Source of the DNA: a virus
Strand: one strand, 5' to 3'
Length of the DNA stretch: 42,975 bases
IMG/VR virus record: IMGVR_UViG_3300006880_000029
Coordinates: 1-42,975 of that record
The notes below the pieces were generated by a model. The model was not told the origin of the DNA. It ran no database searches and was given only the letters and a program-made list of their open reading frames with translations. The position numbers and the translations under genes were made by a program. Below, piece after piece: positions 19,778 to 34,451 of the stretch (positions within the stretch are counted from its first letter, which is position 1; every line of letters starts with the position of its first letter).

Positions 19778-20041
19778 TTATCGCTCGTTCTTCGTGTCGT
19801 CCACGATCGCGGTTGGGTCGTGGTTTACGCCGAAGATGATGTCATTCATCTCAAGAATGCGATCACCGAGTTCGTGAAGCTGCGTGCCGAGCACGTACAC
19901 AGCTCGCGACGTGTCCCTGACCTGGCCGCCAGGAACCATGGTGTCAGCCACCGCATCGAGTGCGCGTGCCGCGTCGCGCCACGTGCGTTGAATGACGGCG
20001 ATTCGTTCGTCACGATGACGTCGCGCGGCATTCTCGTTCAC
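19778..20041 (-). CDS. Small hypothetical protein
   Basis: 87 residues, GTG start inside the end of the TROVE gene. Almost entirely helical, with an Arg/Ala-rich first half (ARRHRDERIAVIQRTWRDAARAL) and an acidic second half. Coupled to the Ro60 gene by overlap, so it is probably made with it. No known family. Confidence 0.55.
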   Translation of the reverse strand: MNENAARRHRDERIAVIQRTWRDAARALDAVADTMVPGGQVRDTSRAVYVLGTQLHELGDRILEMNDIIFGVNHDPTAIVDDTKNER

Positions 20042-21711
20042 ACGTCACCGGCCACGAAGTCGCTGAGCATGTTCGGCGTCGCCGAGTCGAAGCCGACCAC
20101 GTCGAGCGTGCGCGCGTCGGTGACGTCGCCGATCCTCGACCGCGTCGCGGTCATACCCACGACGCCGAGCGCTGCTGGAATACCCATCGACTGACGGTAG
20201 CGCGTCAGCGCCTCGTGCGGGTGAATCGTACCGGCCCACGTCTCGTTGTCGGTGTAGATGAAGAACGCGTCAAACTCGGCGCGACTCTGGAGCGCGCTCG
20301 TCATCGGCAGCGCGCAGTCCGTGCCGCCCCAGGACACGCCGCGCATGACGCGCAGCACGTCGTCGAGCCGCTGTCGTGGCGAGATGTTCAACGTGATGAT
20401 GCCGCGACGTCGAGGATCGCCACCGAAACCGAGACCCGATCCGGACGCCGAGGCGAACGCCACAACCTCGTACTCCGTCTCGACGTTGGCCGTCACGAGC
20501 GCCAGCGCGGCCGACGCCTCCATGCAGGTGATCGGCAGACTCGACACCTTCGTGTTCATCGACGGTGAGACGTCCAGCGCGAGACGCAGCCGCTGGCCGG
20601 TCGATCGCACGGCGCCGAACGCCGCGTAGAACGCGGTATCGAGCGCGTCCACGATCCGGCGCGACGGGATCCAGCGCGTCTCGCCACGCTCGCTGTGGCC
20701 CTGCGCGTACGTGCGCTGTGCCACGAGGACGTTGATCGGGTGTACGCGTCCGTTACGCAGCCGCTCGGCGTCAGTGAGCTGGTGCACGACCTCGTTGGTC
20801 CAACCGCCGGTCGCCGGCAGTAGTCCCAAGTTGGTGAGACGCGGAAGCTGCCGCAGCAGCGCGGTCTGCGGCAGACCACCCTCGAGGAACGCCTCCCACA
20901 CCGCGACCTGGTTCAGCGCCTGCGTCGGCAGTGCCTCCCACGGCAGGCCGTACGTCTTGACACAGTCGACCCAGTGACGCGCACCGCCGGCGCCCTGCGC
21001 GCGCACGAAGCCCTCGACGACGCGCAGCTCATCGTAACCGCTCGTCATTGCCAGCTCGTCCTGAGCAGTCACCTTGGCGTGATGACAGATCCAGTCAAAG
21101 AGCGCTCGTCGAACCAGGTCGTCCGCGGCGGCCTTGGGCTTCGCCAGGCGCAGCAGGTCACGGTGCGTCCAACCCTCGCGCTGCCGGTACTTCACGACCT
21201 GGTAAGCGAGACGACCGACCGGCTGCTTGAGGTACCAGTTCTCGATCGCTCGGTCGAGCACCCGACCGCGTCCACGGAACTGCTTCACGTAGGCATTGAA
21301 CTGCATGAGATGCGTGCCGGTGCGCGCCACCTGCGGCAGCGCCTCGGCCGCCGCGCGTCGCGTATCCACGTCGCCGTGAGCGATGGCGATGGCCAGCGCG
21401 AACAGGGCCGGCTGGTTGCGCGGCGCGCGCCCACCCTGCGAGATCGCGACGATCTCGGTCACGAGTGCGTGGCCGTCGGTTCGCGCCAGCTCCAGCACGA
21501 CCTGGGCGTTGTCCTTGGCCAGGTCGGGAGCGGTCGCGTAGTACGTGCCACCGTCGACACCGAGCGTCAGGAAGCGCCGCAGCCGCTGAAGTGGAGTCAC
21601 CTCGAACGTGAAACCACCCGCCGCGTTGCGCGTTTGCCGTGGATCGGCCGCCTCGGACTGCGGCGTCACGCGCGTCTGCACGGCGCGCAGTGGATCCGTG
21701 AATCCCTTCAT
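20038..21711 (-). CDS. rsr: Ro60/TROVE-domain RNA-binding protein (Rsr)
   Basis: 557 residues; ATG with a GAAGGAG-GTAGGA purine region upstream. The N-terminus DPRQTRNAAGGFTFEVTPLQRLRRFL is the classic TROVE start; the HEAT-repeat ring follows (TYYAT...; ALPQVARTGTHLMQFNAYV; LKQPVGRLAYQVVKYRQREG). The C-terminal von Willebrand A domain has DVSPSM (MIDAS), GGTDCALPM and FIYTDNET. Ro60 binds Y RNAs and misfolded small RNAs, and in bacteria it directs PNPase or takes part in stress and rRNA processing. A phage copy directly downstream of tRNA-like RNAs that resemble Y RNAs is the key context. Confidence 0.9.
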   Translation of the reverse strand: MKGFTDPLRAVQTRVTPQSEAADPRQTRNAAGGFTFEVTPLQRLRRFLTLGVDGGTYYATAPDLAKDNAQVVLELARTDGHALVTEIVAISQGGRAPRNQPALFALAIAIAHGDVDTRRAAAEALPQVARTGTHLMQFNAYVKQFRGRGRVLDRAIENWYLKQPVGRLAYQVVKYRQREGWTHRDLLRLAKPKAAADDLVRRALFDWICHHAKVTAQDELAMTSGYDELRVVEGFVRAQGAGGARHWVDCVKTYGLPWEALPTQALNQVAVWEAFLEGGLPQTALLRQLPRLTNLGLLPATGGWTNEVVHQLTDAERLRNGRVHPINVLVAQRTYAQGHSERGETRWIPSRRIVDALDTAFYAAFGAVRSTGQRLRLALDVSPSMNTKVSSLPITCMEASAALALVTANVETEYEVVAFASASGSGLGFGGDPRRRGIITLNISPRQRLDDVLRVMRGVSWGGTDCALPMTSALQSRAEFDAFFIYTDNETWAGTIHPHEALTRYRQSMGIPAALGVVGMTATRSRIGDVTDARTLDVVGFDSATPNMLSDFVAGDV

Positions 21712-21828
21712 TCCTACATCTCCTTCGTTCCGAAACGTGGGCCGCGAACGTGGTATGTGCCGATCGGGTATGTGTTTTCACCAATTGAAAGATAACCGAC
21801 CAACGAGCAGTTCGCGACCCACGTCGTG

Positions 21829-21986
21829 AGCCTTACGATGAGCGTGTGTCCGTCGTCGAATCAAGCGGCGCGCTAACCAACTGCGCCATCACCCGAAGCG
21901 AATTGCACCCCGCCGGGCGAGTAGGACTCGAACCTACGACCTCCGCCAACCAAAGATAATCGATCGACTTCAGCTCATCTTTAGCT
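21829..21986 (-). ncRNA. Permuted tRNA-like RNA, Pro(UGG)-like
   Basis: Order on the minus strand: leader with GATGAGC (21979-21973), loop TTTGGTT with UGG at 21952-21950, T arm GTAGG-TTCGAGT-CCTAC, 3' acceptor TCGCCCG (21920-21914), 18-base linker, 5' acceptor CGGGTGA (21895-21889), D arm GCGC...GCGC, CCGCT, trailer GCTCATC (21843-21837). Acceptor strands pair 7/7 (one G-U). CCGCT pairs with GGCGG across the break to form the anticodon stem. Leader and trailer pair in a 7-bp helix. The D arm and C1-G72 are typical of tRNA-Pro. Confidence 0.75.
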
Positions 21987-21996
21987 GTGAACACTG

Positions 21997-22116
21997 GGTG
22001 CGTGAACGTGTGAACGCAACTCGGAGTGCCACCCCGCGTGTGGCGTCCGTCGCCGGTTGAGGCGCTGGACAGGAATCGAACCTGCGATAACCGAGTCATC
22101 TTCAGTTCACGACACC
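21997..22116 (-). ncRNA. Permuted tRNA-like RNA lacking an anticodon arm (YrlA-like)
   Basis: Leader GGTG-T-CGTGAAC (22116-22105) pairs with trailer GTTCACG-CACC (22007-21997), 11 bp with one bulged base. Inside, CTCGG pairs with CCGAG. T arm GCAGG-TTCGATT-CCTGT and CCAGCGCC are followed by TCAACC and GGCGACGG; this acceptor-like helix has two mismatches. The D arm is GCCA...TGGC. There is no room for an anticodon arm, so this unit looks more like a Y-RNA tRNA mimic than a tRNA. Confidence 0.6.
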
Positions 22117-22146
22117 TCGTGCTTCCCCTGCCTAGGGAATCTTACC

Positions 22147-22293
22147 GAGTGATCCGCTGAGCGTGCAAGTGCTTTCGGCGTTTAGGCGCTCTCGGCCGCT
22201 GAGCTACGAGCCTCGGAAGGCTCGGTGGGATTTGAACCCACGTCTCTCCATTTGCAGTGGATAACCGATCGCGGTCAGCTCCACGGATCACTC
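22147..22293 (-). ncRNA. Permuted tRNA-like RNA, Cys(GCA)-like
   Basis: Leader (from 22293) and trailer (to 22147) form a helix of about 16 bp with one G-U and one mismatch, incl. GAGTGATCC/GGATCACTC. Next come TCGG/CCGA, an anticodon hairpin CCA-CTGCAAA-TGG (GCA at 22255-22253), T arm GTGGG-TTCAAAT-CCCAC, 3' acceptor CGAGCCT (22224-22218), tetraloop TCCG, 5' acceptor AGGCTCG (22213-22207) and D arm GCTC...GAGC. Acceptor strands pair 7/7. The linker is a UNCG-type tetraloop, which suggests a stable capped stem. Confidence 0.8.
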
Positions 22294-22307
22294 TTAAGTT
22301 GTTACGC

Positions 22308-22452
22308 GTAAGACGCTGAGCGTGTGAGTGCTTTCGGGTTTTAGCGCTCTGCCAGTTGAGCTACGGGCCCAGGTGGTGGACCCGACAGGACTCGAACCTG
22401 CAACCTCTCCATTAGAAGTGGATAACCGATCGCGTTCAGCTCAGCTTCTCAC
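22308..22452 (-). ncRNA. Permuted tRNA-like RNA, Arg(UCU)-like
   Basis: Leader GTGAGAAGCTGAGC (22452-22439) pairs with trailer GCTCAGCGTCTTAC (22321-22308), 13 of 14 including a G-U. Then TCGG/CCGA, anticodon hairpin TCCA-CTTCTAA-TGGA (UCU at 22416-22414), T arm GCAGG-TTCGAGT-CCTGT, 3' acceptor CGGGTCC with ACCA encoded after it, 5' acceptor GGGCCCG (22370-22364) and D arm GCTC...GAGC. Acceptor strands pair 7/7 (one G-U). An encoded CCA inside the linker hints at a tRNA origin. Confidence 0.8.
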
Positions 22453-22624
22453 TCTTCAGTTGTGGCGACGAACGTGGTACGTGCGACGTCCGTCGGACTT
22501 CAGGTGCTCCCCTCCGGGAAGTTCCTAAAGATAAACGTCGTACATCAGTTCGCCGTTGTCGTTGTCGTCGCCAACGCTACGACGTCACCGCGCTGCGGCG
22601 ACGTCCGATGACGTCGATCTGACG

Positions 22625-22734: not shown

Positions 22735-22789
22735 CTAATAGGAGTGTTTGCATCTTGCGAGGATGCACATGTTTCCTCATCGTGATCCA

Positions 22790-23109
22790 GGTCGCGTGCA
22801 CCTTTAAGGATACCACCGAGCTTGAGGTAAGCGTTGTGCCTTGCCTTTAGGCCACACCGGCGTGGTAGCGGAGACCGGATTCGAACCGGTGACCTTCGGA
22901 TTATGAGCCCGACGCGCTGCCGAACTGCGCTACTCCGCGTTGGTGGGAGCCGAGCACCCGGATGGTATGCTCGGTTCCCGAGGTTCCTAACTCGTGATAA
23001 CCCACGCCAGTAGGCAACCAGAGTCGAGGGTGAAGGAACCCGTGCCGGTGGCTGGACTTGAACCAGCATCTCAACGTTCTAGGTGGTGTATCCCGTAGAT
23101 CACACGACC
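22790..23109 (-). ncRNA. Permuted tRNA-like RNA with a tRNA-Met inside its linker
   Basis: Leader GGTCGTGTG (23109-23101) pairs 9/9 with trailer CACGCGACC (22798-22790); GGATAC and CACC pair with GTATCC and GGTG further in. T arm GCTGG-TTCAAGT-CCAGC; 3' acceptor CACCGGC (23050-23044) pairs 7/7 with GCCGGTG (22861-22855), about 180 bases away. CGTTG (3' part) pairs with CAACG (22836-22832) as an anticodon stem. The anticodon itself cannot be called. The linker holds the complete tRNA-Met(CAT), ending one base before the 5' acceptor. Confidence 0.65.
22863..22939 (-). tRNA. tRNA-Met(CAT)
   Basis: 77 bases including encoded CCA. Acceptor GCGGAG/CTCCGC pairs from position 2; position 1-72 is C and T, an unpaired end. 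Anticodon arm TCGGG-CTCATAA-TCCGA, T arm ACCGG-TTCGAAT-CCGGT, D stem GCGC/GCGC. The open 1-72 pair is a feature of initiator tRNA, but three G-C pairs in the anticodon stem are missing, so I call it Met without stating elongator or initiator. Confidence 0.85.
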
Positions 23110-23128
23110 GCACGGTCTGGTTGAGCCT

Positions 23129-23335
23129 GTAGCGGATCAACGTAACCGTGATTCCGTCTGGTCTTGCCTCTGCCGATTGGGCTACCTCGACGTCGCGAGG
23201 AGGAAGGACCAACTTCCTCCCCGCTGGCCACAGCAACCAACGTCACGGTGTGACGTCGTGCCGAGGGTAGGACTCGAACCTACACCGGAGATCAGACGTA
23301 TGAACTTGTCAAGGATCAACTTCAGCTTGCGCTAC
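23129..23335 (-). ncRNA. Permuted tRNA-like RNA, first of the cluster
   Basis: The leader carries GCTGAAGTTGATC, nearly identical to that of the Pro-like unit. T arm GTAGG-TTCGAGT-CCTAC; 3' acceptor CCTCGGC (23266-23260) pairs 7/7 (one G-U) with GTCGAGG (23191-23185) after a ~70-base linker that forms two hairpins. The D arm GCC...GGC follows. CGTCTG (23298-23293) pairs with CAGACG (23160-23155), and GTAGCG with CGCTAC at the outside. No clear anticodon arm is seen; a CAT could lie in the loop. Confidence 0.6.
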
Positions 23336-23386
23336 GTTACGTAGTCTAGTCGATCACGTCGCTGGTGAGTGACGCTAGGCGGCGCG

Positions 23387-24124
23387 CTAAGATCGTCCGA
23401 GAACGTAGTCCAGCAGGATCGACGCGGGCTTGGCCGGCACGACGTCGAGTAGGTTCGCCCGCTCGCGCGCCGTCTTCACGGCGTCGCGCAATTCCACGAC
23501 GCGCAGCAGAACGGCGCGCTTCTCGTCCGCCGGCAGCGCACCAGACAACTTCGTCGTGGTCCAGTAGCCACGCACCTCGCTGTCCTCGTAGCGTTCGACC
23601 TGCGCGGGGTGCTTGTCGGTCGCGGGGTACAGCACCAGCGCCTTCGGGACGCGCTTCTCGCGCGCGGTCTCGACCGGCGTCGACACGTACGTACCTCGGT
23701 TGCCGTCCCACGCCCACGTCTCGGCCGGGTCGAGCGACGGCATCTTGGTGACGAACGTGTACAGGTCCTCGAGAGCCTTCTCAAGGAACAGCAGGTAGGT
23801 CGACGGTACCTCCGATAGCAGCGTGACACCGTTCACGACGACGTCAGCCCGCGCCTCGGTGTTGGCGTACGTGACGGTCGCCTCGGTGTTCCAGCGCTCG
23901 AGCAGCAGTCGGTTCAGCTCGTCAAGAACGTCGGTCGCGCTCGTTCGCACCGAACGCGACTCGTCGGGAAACCTCTCGTCGTCGTCGCCGATCGGTCGGT
24001 ACGTGCGCGTGATGCCCACGTACAGGTCGATCTTCTGACTCTCACGGTGCAGCGCGGTCAGTGCGCCGTGCACCCGGGTCTTCGCGGCGCGCGCCAGCGC
24101 GACCGCCTCGCTCAATTTCGTCAC
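23387..24124 (-). CDS. Conserved hypothetical protein, helical
   Basis: 245 residues; GTG overlapping the preceding small gene stop (GTGA). Helical N-terminus (MTKLSEAVALARAAKTRVHG), a tract with IDLYVGITRTYRP, and a Thr-rich middle; the C-terminal ~60 residues look like a coiled coil (DEKRAVLLRVVELRDAVKTARERANLLD). It is the last protein gene before the RNA cluster and Ro60. I cannot name the family with confidence. A role in RNA handling is only suggested by position. Confidence 0.6.
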   Translation of the reverse strand: MTKLSEAVALARAAKTRVHGALTALHRESQKIDLYVGITRTYRPIGDDDERFPDESRSVRTSATDVLDELNRLLLERWNTEATVTYANTEARADVVVNGVTLLSEVPSTYLLFLEKALEDLYTFVTKMPSLDPAETWAWDGNRGTYVSTPVETAREKRVPKALVLYPATDKHPAQVERYEDSEVRGYWTTTKLSGALPADEKRAVLLRVVELRDAVKTARERANLLDVVPAKPASILLDYVLGRS

Positions 24125-29342: not shown

Positions 29343-29625
29343 CGCGATGATGACGACCGAGCGAGGGTTCGAAATTCACCGGCGCGCCGGACGCGTCCAG
29401 CCACACGCGGTGCGCCTCGCGCACGTCGGCCGCGACCTGCTCCAGCGCGGCCGCCGTCACCTCCGAGACCTCGTCCGCGACGCAGCGAAACGTGCCCACC
29501 GGGTACTCGGTCGGCGGCGCGGCGTCGTCGCCACCGTTGCCGATGCGAATCACGATCTCGCCGTACTTCAGCTGCGGTTGCGGTGGCGCGGTCAGCGCGT
29601 CACTCGGGTCGTTGAGAGTCGTCAT
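29332..29625 (-). CDS. Hypothetical protein
   Basis: 97 residues from ATG at 29625, preceded by GGAGG six bases away; an ATG two codons upstream is too near the site. KYGEIVIRIGNGGDDA starts a beta-rich part and the middle is helical and Ala-rich (EVTAAALEQVAADVREAHRV). Overlaps the nucleotidyltransferase-like gene by 26 bases. Unknown. Confidence 0.5.
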   Translation of the reverse strand: MTTLNDPSDALTAPPQPQLKYGEIVIRIGNGGDDAAPPTEYPVGTFRCVADEVSEVTAAALEQVAADVREAHRVWLDASGAPVNFEPSLGRHHRDDQ

Positions 29626-30439
29626 AATCATCCTCCGTAAAGAAACCGGTCGTCCACATGTACTCGTGTGCGTCGATCAGAAACGCACTCACGGCCGCGT
29701 GATCAGGTCGATCCGGGAGCGGCGAGCGACCGTTCGGACCAAGTAGTGCCTCGAGTTGAACCTCAAGATCGCGAGCGACGTCGAGAGCCTCCTTCATCGA
29801 GTGCTGACCTACCCGCAGTTCGCGCAGCCACTCGGCGTCCGACTCCCTCATTGGTAGCGTGAAGCGACCGGTGCGCAACAGCTCCACGCCCTGGAGGCCG
29901 AGACGCACCATGTGATGCGCAAACTTCGTGTCGAAGCCGTAGCGCTCGATCAGCTCCGGTCGGTTGGTCGCGCCGCCACGCTGACCGAGCAGCTTCTCGC
30001 GCTGCGACCGCATGTAGCCCAGAAACCGATGACCCGCCCGACGCGACAGCAGAAACTCCGGGGTGCGCCGCAGGCTCGCGCCGACGTCGTTCAGGTACAC
30101 GAGCTGCTCGCGCGCCACGAACAGCGGCACCAGGATCGACGGGTTGCCCTGGATCGCCAGGTGCGTCCACTTGCGCAGCGCGTACACCGTCAGGTCAACG
30201 TCACCCGGACCGGACCGGACGCCGGTCGGCTGCGTGCGCCACTCGTACTGGTCGAAGCGCTCCAGGCCGATCACGCAGTCCCGTGGTGGGACGCAGAGAC
30301 CCATCTCATCGCGGTCGTCCTGGTCGTCGATCGCGCAGCCGGTGACGGTCGAGCCGACGCGCGTGAGCAGCACCATGCCGCGTCGTGCCACGTCACGCGC
30401 GTGATTCGGTTCTTCACCCTGAAACGCGGGGTGTCTCAC
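29600..30439 (-). CDS. RlaP-like nucleotidyltransferase
   Basis: 279 residues. LLTRVGSTVTGCAIDDQDDRDEMGL holds the G-S motif and the Asp cluster of a DNA polymerase beta-type nucleotidyltransferase, and GDVDLTVYALRKWTHLAIQGNP is the third acidic strand and following helix, as in the RlaP family common in phages. A C-terminal helical domain follows. It would transfer a nucleotide to RNA or protein; the target is unknown. The start overlaps the previous stop (GTGA). Confidence 0.65.
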   Translation of the reverse strand: MRHPAFQGEEPNHARDVARRGMVLLTRVGSTVTGCAIDDQDDRDEMGLCVPPRDCVIGLERFDQYEWRTQPTGVRSGPGDVDLTVYALRKWTHLAIQGNPSILVPLFVAREQLVYLNDVGASLRRTPEFLLSRRAGHRFLGYMRSQREKLLGQRGGATNRPELIERYGFDTKFAHHMVRLGLQGVELLRTGRFTLPMRESDAEWLRELRVGQHSMKEALDVARDLEVQLEALLGPNGRSPLPDRPDHAAVSAFLIDAHEYMWTTGFFTEDDYDDSQRPE

Positions 30440-34025: not shown

Positions 34026-34026
34026 G

Positions 34027-34093
34027 AGCCCCGGCTGGGACTCGAACCCAGCCTCGTCGACCTGATCGGGATCGACGCGCGACCTCGCGGGGC
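34027..34093 (-). tRNA. tRNA-like element with a shrunken anticodon arm
   Basis: 67 bases in normal (not permuted) order: acceptor GCCCCG/CGGGGC (six pairs), D stem GGTC/GATC, T arm CTGGG-TTCGAGT-CCCAG. Between D and T arms only a small hairpin CGA-TCAGG-TCG fits; no 5-bp, 7-loop anticodon arm. Either a degenerate tRNA or a tRNA mimic. No anticodon is assigned. Confidence 0.4.
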
Positions 34094-34097
34094 GCGG

Positions 34098-34451
34098 CTA
34101 GCGCACGCCGCGCAGCGCGGCGTACAGCGCGACGGCCGCCACCAGTAGGCTAAGAATGACGGCGACGCGCTGCACCGGCGTCCAGCGGCGGTCCGACTCG
34201 CGCAGTCGCGACTCGCCGTCGGCGTGCAGCGCCGCGGCGGTCGACGCCGCCGAGGCTGCCTGACTGACCGCCTGATCGGCCAGCCGCTGCAGGTCCAGCT
34301 CCACCTGGGTCAGCGTCTGCGCGATGTCCGCGAGGTGCCCGTTGATCGCCGAGAAGTGCCGGTCGTGATCGGCGAGACGCGTCTCGATCGCACCGGCGGT
34401 GACGCCGCGCTCGTACTCGCCACGCACGCCGCTCTGGGCATCGCTGGACAC
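34098..34451 (-). CDS. Coiled-coil protein with C-terminal membrane anchor
   Basis: 117 residues from GTG at 34451. ETRLADHDRHFSAINGHLADIAQTLTQVELDLQRLADQ is a heptad-type helix, then Ala-rich AASAASTAAALHADGES and a final hydrophobic segment (VAVILSLLVAAVALYAAL). The shape resembles phage tail-anchored or hemolysin-XhlA-like proteins (helix plus C-terminal TM). Lysis function is a guess. Confidence 0.55.
   Translation of the reverse strand: MSSDAQSGVRGEYERGVTAGAIETRLADHDRHFSAINGHLADIAQTLTQVELDLQRLADQAVSQAASAASTAAALHADGESRLRESDRRWTPVQRVAVILSLLVAAVALYAALRGVR

What the first reader, a model, noticed from the sequence alone, without database searches (positions are those of the whole stretch)
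21829..22452. Covarying leader/trailer helix with a shared CTGAA...TCGGTTAT motif
Seen: each unit is enclosed by pairing of its leader with its trailer. The inner end covaries: GAGC/GCTC in three units, GAAC/GTTC in the unit without anticodon arm. Outer parts differ in sequence but pair: GATGAGC/GCTCATC, GCTGAGC/GCTCAGC, CGTGAAC/GTTCACG, GAGTGATCC/GGATCACTC. Between lies a shared asymmetric loop (TGAA on one side, CAC on the other) and a 4-5-bp helix TCGG/CCGA, TCGA/TCGA or CTCGG/CCGAG, then TTAT. Inference: one protein, plausibly Ro60, reads this element in all units.
Basis: seen in the sequence. Interest (0 to 1): 0.82.

Follow-up and report, generated by a model that had tools for sequence, protein, structure and literature searches.

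The report
Phage Ro60-linked tRNA-mimic RNA array
Next to its Ro60 gene this phage carries a row of small non-coding RNAs whose paired ends form the probable docking stem for the Ro60 ring protein and whose other end is a tRNA written in rearranged order, some with a complete anticodon arm that the known bacterial relatives appear to lack.

Summary
On the minus strand upstream of a Ro60 gene (20038-21711) lie four units (21831-22452). Each is enclosed by a leader/trailer helix with a conserved asymmetric loop, a short inner helix and TTAT. Homologous units sit beside Ro60 in actinophages and bacteria; all seven outer-helix pairs covary (26 units; 124 phage units). In 98 Nocardia-group genomes the RNA and a TROVE protein co-occur almost perfectly (38 both, 1 RNA only, 2 protein only, 57 neither). 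The stem is therefore very probably the Ro60-binding stem of Y RNAs of the YrlA kind. Two stem-only units flank the array, giving six.

Units 1 and 2 also have an anticodon arm, absent from Rfam's YrlA model. Its stem is completed across the Ro60 stem by covarying pairs, and U33 and purine 37 are kept. The triplet drifts faster than the rest of the RNA, does not match the tRNA body, and the acceptor end is often a closed short loop. So these look like mimics, not decoding tRNAs: a new variant of a known kind.

Side lead: DUF7873, also here, is followed by a second family of permuted tRNA-like genes.

The parts
20038..21711 (-). Ro60 (TROVE + vWA_Ro60) protein gene, 557 aa
   Evidence: Pfam PF05731 E 2.5e-43, PF25045 E 1.4e-51; PDB 2nvo/1yvp matches; NCBIfam Rsr 486 bits, below its equivalog cut-off of 900
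21737..21823 (-). Y-RNA-like unit without tRNA domain (Ro60-type stem only)
   Evidence: model R1 28.1 bits E 3.6e-6; fold z -5.2
21831..21986 (-). unit 4: permuted tRNA-like Y RNA; body like tRNA-Pro, loop with TGG; outer helix GATGAGC/GCTCATC, inner TCGA/TCGA
   Evidence: R1 65.0 bits; with anticodon masked the four nearest of 285 tRNAs are all tRNA-Pro
21995..22118 (-). unit 3: Y RNA with T arm but no anticodon arm; outer helix CGTGAAC/GTTCACG
   Evidence: R1 36.8 bits; fold z -3.05
22150..22291 (-). unit 2: permuted tRNA-like Y RNA with anticodon arm GCA
   Evidence: R1 102.7 bits; halves rejoined read as tRNA-Cys(gca) by ARAGORN
22309..22452 (-). unit 1: permuted tRNA-like Y RNA with anticodon arm TCT; acceptor loop ACCACCT
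   Evidence: R1 127.9 bits E 5e-33; halves rejoined read as tRNA-Arg(tct)
22439..22445 (-). unit 1 leader strand of outer helix, GCTGAGC
   Evidence: covariation
22315..22321 (-). unit 1 trailer strand of outer helix, GCTCAGC
   Evidence: covariation
22422..22429 (-). unit 1 inner helix strand TCGG and TTAT
   Evidence: columns 33-38 CGGTTA invariant or nearly so
22409..22421 (-). unit 1 anticodon hairpin CCA-CTTCTAA-TGG
   Evidence: helix 3 of A2: all 3 pairs with changes on both sides, 94.9% paired
22343..22344 (-). CT after the D arm that completes the anticodon stem by pairing with AG 22407-22408
   Evidence: helix 4 of A2: pair 53-122 is AU 13, GC 7, CG 3, GU 2
22466..22555 (-). further Y-RNA-like stem unit upstream of unit 1
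   Evidence: fold z -3.1; motif by eye GGCGAACTGA..GTTTATC / CACGTTCGTC

Best explanation
The units are a tandem array of phage Y RNAs of the YrlA kind. The leader/trailer helix with its asymmetric loop is the docking stem for the phage Ro60 encoded just downstream. The rest folds as a tRNA in circularly permuted order: anticodon arm, T arm, acceptor 3' strand, closed loop, acceptor 5' strand, D arm. The Ro60 stem enters through the anticodon stem. In units 1 and 2 the anticodon arm is present and its stem is completed across the junction. Shown here: the helices, their covariation, the permuted order, and the association with TROVE proteins. Inferred: Ro60 binds the stem, and the tRNA-shaped end holds a tRNA-binding host or phage factor against the Ro60 ring, either as the tether for an RNA-processing enzyme (as PNPase in Deinococcus) or as bait that competes with tRNA. 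What seems to be read is the shape of the anticodon loop (U33, purine 37), not its triplet. The stated confidence is for the Ro60 docking stem and tRNA mimicry, not for the choice between tether and bait.
For: Covariation of the helices. Four window hits to the model. Homologues beside Ro60 in phages and bacteria. Co-occurrence 38/1/2/57 in 98 genomes, with 53 of 60 hits within 4 kb on the same strand. Genomes that seemed to lack Ro60 turned out to carry a divergent TROVE protein next to the RNA. Ro60 domains and solved homologues. Rfam YrlA matches three units, sub-threshold. Anticodon loops: U33 in 68/69 phage and 62/65 bacterial 7-nt loops, purine 37 in 64/69 and 57/65, with 24 different phage triplets.
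Against: Scores for Rfam YrlA are below its gathering threshold (29-36 against 69 bits). No binding or expression data. Seven full-length hits in the Nocardia group lie away from any TROVE match, six of them in genomes that have one elsewhere, so some RNAs would act in trans. What the tRNA-like end does is not shown.
Confidence: 0.87

Rival explanations
1. The anticodon-armed units are circularly permuted tRNA genes: the leader/trailer helix is spliced out, the acceptor loop is cut, and working Arg, Cys and Pro tRNAs result. Ro60 would chaperone the precursors.
For: Rejoined units 1, 2 and 4 read as tRNA-Arg(tct), tRNA-Cys(gca) and tRNA-Pro(tgg). Unit 1 has A73-CCA, unit 2 has U73. Unit 4 has a tRNA-Pro body.
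Against: The triplet changes faster than the rest between close relatives (phage 0.19 against 0.06, p 0.004; bacteria 0.33 against 0.095, p 1e-4). Anticodon and tRNA body do not match beyond chance (4 of 47 against 3.1 expected). Acceptor loops are 5 nt or shorter in 35 of 75 phage units, and only 6 of 75 encode N73-CCA. No RtcB ligase in the window.
Confidence: 0.05
2. Bait: the anticodon-armed Y RNAs divert tRNA anticodon nucleases of host toxin systems, with Ro60 stabilising the bait; triplets vary because toxins vary. This is a reading of the last step of the best explanation, not an alternative to the Ro60 stem.
For: A YrlA tRNA-like domain acting as competitive inhibitor of an anticodon nuclease has been proposed for Salmonella (PMC7790460). 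Triplets vary while U33, purine 37 and stem are kept.
Against: No nuclease partner identified. In bacteria the triplet varies no faster than other loops (p 0.17), so free drift suffices there. The proposal for Salmonella is untested.
Confidence: 0.25
3. The array is really a run of intron-bearing tRNAs read across units: the 5' half of one unit with the 3' half of the next.
For: Rfam calls such a tRNA at 22217-22370 (38.2 bits), joining unit 1's 5' half to unit 2's 3' half over a 95-nt insert.
Against: Acceptor strands pair on average 6.6 of 7 within a unit and 3.7 of 7 between neighbours; leader/trailer helices also favour the within-unit reading. The within-unit acceptor figure is partly a selection effect. 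The within-unit helices covary.
Confidence: 0.02

Closest known systems
YrlA / bacterial Y RNAs (Rfam RF02553; Chen 2014 and Wang 2018, cited in PMC8394870, PMC7790460 and PMC11472068)
   Same: Next to Ro60/Rsr, ends paired into a Ro60-binding stem, D, T and acceptor arms in circularly permuted order. Y RNAs in mycobacteriophages were already reported (cited in PMC12282133).
   Different: A 7-nt anticodon arm inserted between the inner helix and the T arm, with its stem completed across the junction. The RF02553 consensus has none and scores the units 29-36 bits against a threshold of 69. Several units per genome.
Vertebrate Y RNAs
   Same: Ro60 site of a 7-bp helix with a 3-nt bulge on the opposite strand (PMC4726728).
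   Different: No tRNA-like domain in vertebrate Y RNAs; RNA homology is not claimed.
Circularly permuted tRNA genes (algae, archaea; from own knowledge and PMC10085705)
   Same: 3' half precedes 5' half; flanks pair.
   Different: Closed, often very short acceptor loop; triplet not conserved; no sign of splicing.
Permuted tmRNA (Rfam RF04321)
   Same: Permuted tRNA-like part; faint match at 22362-22401, 21.7 bits against threshold 47.
   Different: Far below threshold; no tag-reading frame was looked for.

Membership tests
Y RNA (YrlA kind) | encoded next to a Ro60/TROVE gene | tested here: met
   Ro60 at 20038-21711; 53 of 60 Nocardia-group hits within 4 kb of TROVE on the same strand
Y RNA (YrlA kind) | 5' and 3' ends pair into a stem with asymmetric bulges | tested here: met
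   helix 1 of A2, 7 of 7 pairs with double changes; A3
Y RNA (YrlA kind) | permuted tRNA-like domain with T, acceptor and D arms | tested here: met
   helices 5-7, 97-100% paired and covarying; met in units 1, 2, 4; unit 3 clearly keeps only the T arm
Y RNA (YrlA kind) | bound by Ro60 | not testable with these tools
   needs a binding assay
Rfam RF02553 YrlA as curated | score above gathering threshold (69 bits) | tested here: not met
   36.2, 29.9 and 29.2 bits; none over threshold in 16 further loci
NCBIfam Rsr equivalog NF041674 (protein) | score above curated cut-off 900 | tested here: not met
   486 bits, E 1e-145, nearly full length: a Ro60 homologue, not filed as that equivalog
circularly permuted tRNA gene | two halves in reversed order forming a full cloverleaf | tested here: met
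   ARAGORN on rejoined units
circularly permuted tRNA gene | conserved anticodon matching the tRNA body | tested here: not met
   unit 4 is an exception
circularly permuted tRNA gene | acceptor interval that can release an N73-CCA end | tested here: not met
   6 of 75 phage units with N-CCA, 35 of 75 loops of 5 nt or less; unit 1 itself does have ACCA
circularly permuted tRNA gene | spliced or circular RNA product | not testable with these tools
   needs RNA sequencing

The most novel reading that the evidence does not exclude
Permuted tRNA mimicry is a recurrent device in phages with at least two unrelated protein partners. Ro60 holds closed mimics whose anticodon loop keeps its fold but not its triplet. 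DUF7873, an uncharacterised protein encoded in the same window, is partnered with its own permuted tRNA-like RNAs, about half of which (16 of 29) encode N73-CCA and may be processed into genuine two-piece or rejoined tRNAs.
Probability: 0.35. Interest if true: 0.9.

Novelty: new variant of a known kind. Interest (0 to 1): 0.62.

Why it matters
Y RNAs are a poorly understood part of Ro60 particles. A phage array with four tRNA-like designs and two stem-only ones beside a single Ro60 gene is a natural comparison set for what the stem and the tRNA-like end each do. The anticodon arm, with conserved fold and free triplet, predicts that the partner reads tRNA shape and so makes that partner findable. 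Annotation pipelines miss or misname these RNAs: Rfam calls no YrlA in 16 loci, and GenBank lists two of them as tRNA-Thr and tRNA-Asn.

Tried and rejected
Intron-bearing tRNAs across units: rejected by pairing, with the caveat that units were chosen partly by within-unit acceptor pairing. Working permuted tRNAs: disfavoured by triplet drift, no body match and closed acceptor loops. Units in genomes without Ro60: the medium-scoring Nocardia-group hits first looked like exceptions; eight of the ten ORFs picked near them, and the family search, gave a TROVE protein beside the RNA. One exception, G090, remains (49 bits). RtcB in the window: none; the record may be a fragment. DUF7873 fold: confident model (pLDDT 89.8) but no convincing PDB match (best Foldseek E 2.4e-3 with TM 0.1; VIA-align Z under 7). 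Papers: the primary YrlA articles (Chen 2014, Wang 2018, Sim and Wolin 2018) are not held, so whether they already mention an anticodon arm could not be checked. A set of near-identical GenBank phages for substitution rates was not available (one record).

Full report
What is there. The window is a 42,975-base IMG/VR virus record. Everything in the finding lies on the minus strand, directly upstream of a 557-aa ORF (20038-21711) with TROVE and vWA_Ro60 domains. That ORF aligns end to end with solved Deinococcus Rsr (2nvo) and 60-kDa Ro (1yvp). The four units are 22309-22452, 22150-22291, 21995-22118 and 21831-21986.

What the units are. Read along the minus strand, units 1, 2 and 4 run: leader, [anticodon region, variable region, T arm, acceptor 3' strand], short loop, [acceptor 5' strand, D arm], trailer. 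That is a tRNA in circularly permuted order, with the leader/trailer helix entering through the anticodon stem. In unit 1 the stem CTCCA/TGGAG is made of CT after the D arm plus CCA after the leader, so the helix is inserted between positions 28 and 29. Cutting after TTAT in the leader and 5 nt before the inner helix in the trailer, ARAGORN reads the rejoined units as tRNA-Arg(tct), tRNA-Cys(gca) and tRNA-Pro(tgg). Unit 3 keeps the stem and T arm but no anticodon arm. Two further units with the same stem but no tRNA part flank the array (21737-21823; about 22466-22555).

Is it more than chance. Ro60 loci were collected from IMG/VR, GenBank phages and GTDB genomes. Units were found by T arm, acceptor and D arm, then by a motif near TTA. 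An alignment of 26 diverse phage units gave 95% standard pairs, 23 of 31 pairs with changes on both sides and a covariation score of 0.578 against 0.191 in shuffles (0/500) and at most 0.138 when slid. The outer helix has double changes at 7 of 7 pairs. The split anticodon-stem pair is AU 13, GC 7, CG 3 and GU 2. Shuffles do not remove relatedness, so these are not formal probabilities. A covariance model from this alignment finds window units 1, 2, 4 and 3 at 127.9, 102.7, 65.0 and 36.8 bits, 247 hits in 93 phage loci and 203 in 80 bacterial loci; weaker and partial hits include ordinary tRNAs. On 124 distinct phage hits the score is 0.538 against 0.171; that alignment is fitted to the structure and leans towards it.

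Does Ro60 read it. In 98 genomes of the Nocardia group, 39 have a full-length hit and 40 a TROVE match: 38 both, 1 RNA only, 2 protein only, 57 neither (Fisher p 1e-23); 53 of 60 hits lie within 4 kb of a TROVE match, all on its strand. Many of those genomes lacked the vWA_Ro60 domain and first looked like exceptions, but a divergent TROVE protein lies beside the RNA there, with a different leader sequence. [quoted passage not shown] Binding itself is inferred.

Mimic or tRNA. Evidence for shape: 7-nt loops have U33 in 68/69 phage and 62/65 bacterial units and a purine at 37 in 64/69 and 57/65. Evidence against decoding: 24 different triplets in phages, changing faster than the rest between close relatives (8/42 against 0.060, p 0.004; bacteria 12/36 against 0.095, p 1e-4). 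Two near-identical pairs of prophage units differ in TCT against TGT. The phage comparison rests on 14 pairs, and in bacteria the triplet is not faster than other loops (p 0.17). With the anticodon masked, the nearest ordinary tRNA has the isotype of the anticodon in 4 of 47 phage units (3.1 expected). Acceptor loops are 5 nt or less in 35 of 75 units, UUCG and GAAA among them, and N73-CCA is rare (6 of 75). Unit 4 is an exception: its four nearest tRNAs are all tRNA-Pro, which suggests capture of a tRNA-Pro sequence, but its loop has T at position 37.

Known and new. YrlA RNAs, their D, T and acceptor mimicry, their circular permutation and their presence in mycobacteriophages are published (PMC8394870, PMC11472068, PMC12282133). 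I therefore call this a new variant of a known kind.

How it probably works. Ro60 binds the stem on its outer surface (inferred from homology). The tRNA-like end then presents a full tRNA silhouette, in units 1 and 2 including the anticodon loop, to a tRNA-binding partner. In Deinococcus the Y RNA tethers Rsr to PNPase (PMC8394870, PMC7790460), and bait for an anticodon nuclease has been proposed in Salmonella (PMC7790460). I cannot choose between tether and bait from sequence.

A second family. The neighbouring ORF DUF7873 (23387-24124) has relatives in 46 IMG/VR loci. In most, another permuted tRNA-like gene follows within a few hundred bases: 29 distinct units in 36 loci examined have acceptor 7/7 plus D arm. 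The anticodon stem is 5/5 in 18 of 29 (2.8 expected on shuffling, maximum 9), leader and trailer pair better than shuffled (7.3 against 5.6), and 16 of 29 begin the acceptor loop with N-CCA. No Ro60 was found in those stretches. The window's own candidates are at 23128-23345 and 22772-23112; the latter has its halves 182 nt apart with a complete tRNA-Met gene between them. DUF7873 has no solved relative that I could find.

Noticed in passing
window 23387-24124 and loci L202-L247: DUF7873 (PF25283), a protein of unknown function, is in most loci followed by a second family of circularly permuted tRNA-like genes with their own leader/trailer helix; 16 of 29 encode N73-CCA in the acceptor loop. 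Rfam does not call those examined. Possibly genuine permuted or two-piece tRNAs.
   Followed up: partly
window 22772-23112 (-): Permuted tRNA-like pair with anticodon TAG: 3' half (near 23044-23085) 182 nt upstream of its 5' half (near 22828-22861), acceptor 7/7, anticodon stem 5/5, flanks complementary, with a complete tRNA-Met gene (22863-22939) lying between the halves.
   Followed up: partly
window 23128-23345 (-): Second permuted tRNA-like element directly after DUF7873: acceptor CCTCGGC/GTCGAGG 7/7 over 68 nt, apparent CAT triplet and an unusually long anticodon stem.
   Followed up: partly
MW584167.1 26001-26079; PQ655446.1 26711-26777: Genes annotated in GenBank as tRNA-Thr(tgt) and tRNA-Asn coincide with these permuted Y RNAs and are probably not tRNAs.
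   Followed up: yes
L176-L191 (Nocardia group): A divergent TROVE protein without the vWA_Ro60 model match has its own permuted tRNA-like RNA with a different leader (ACCCGGTGCGCAGGCAACGGTTACTT) and often triplets TCT, CCT or CTT.
   Followed up: partly
L195-L199: Full-length Y RNA hits in Nocardia-group genomes far from the TROVE gene that the genome carries elsewhere, i.e. possible trans-acting copies.
   Followed up: partly
window 29600-30439 (-): RlaP-like nucleotidyltransferase (PF10127, RNA repair pathway) in the same phage.
   Followed up: no
window 34026-34121 (-): tRNA-Arg(gcg) gene far from the other RNA genes.
   Followed up: no
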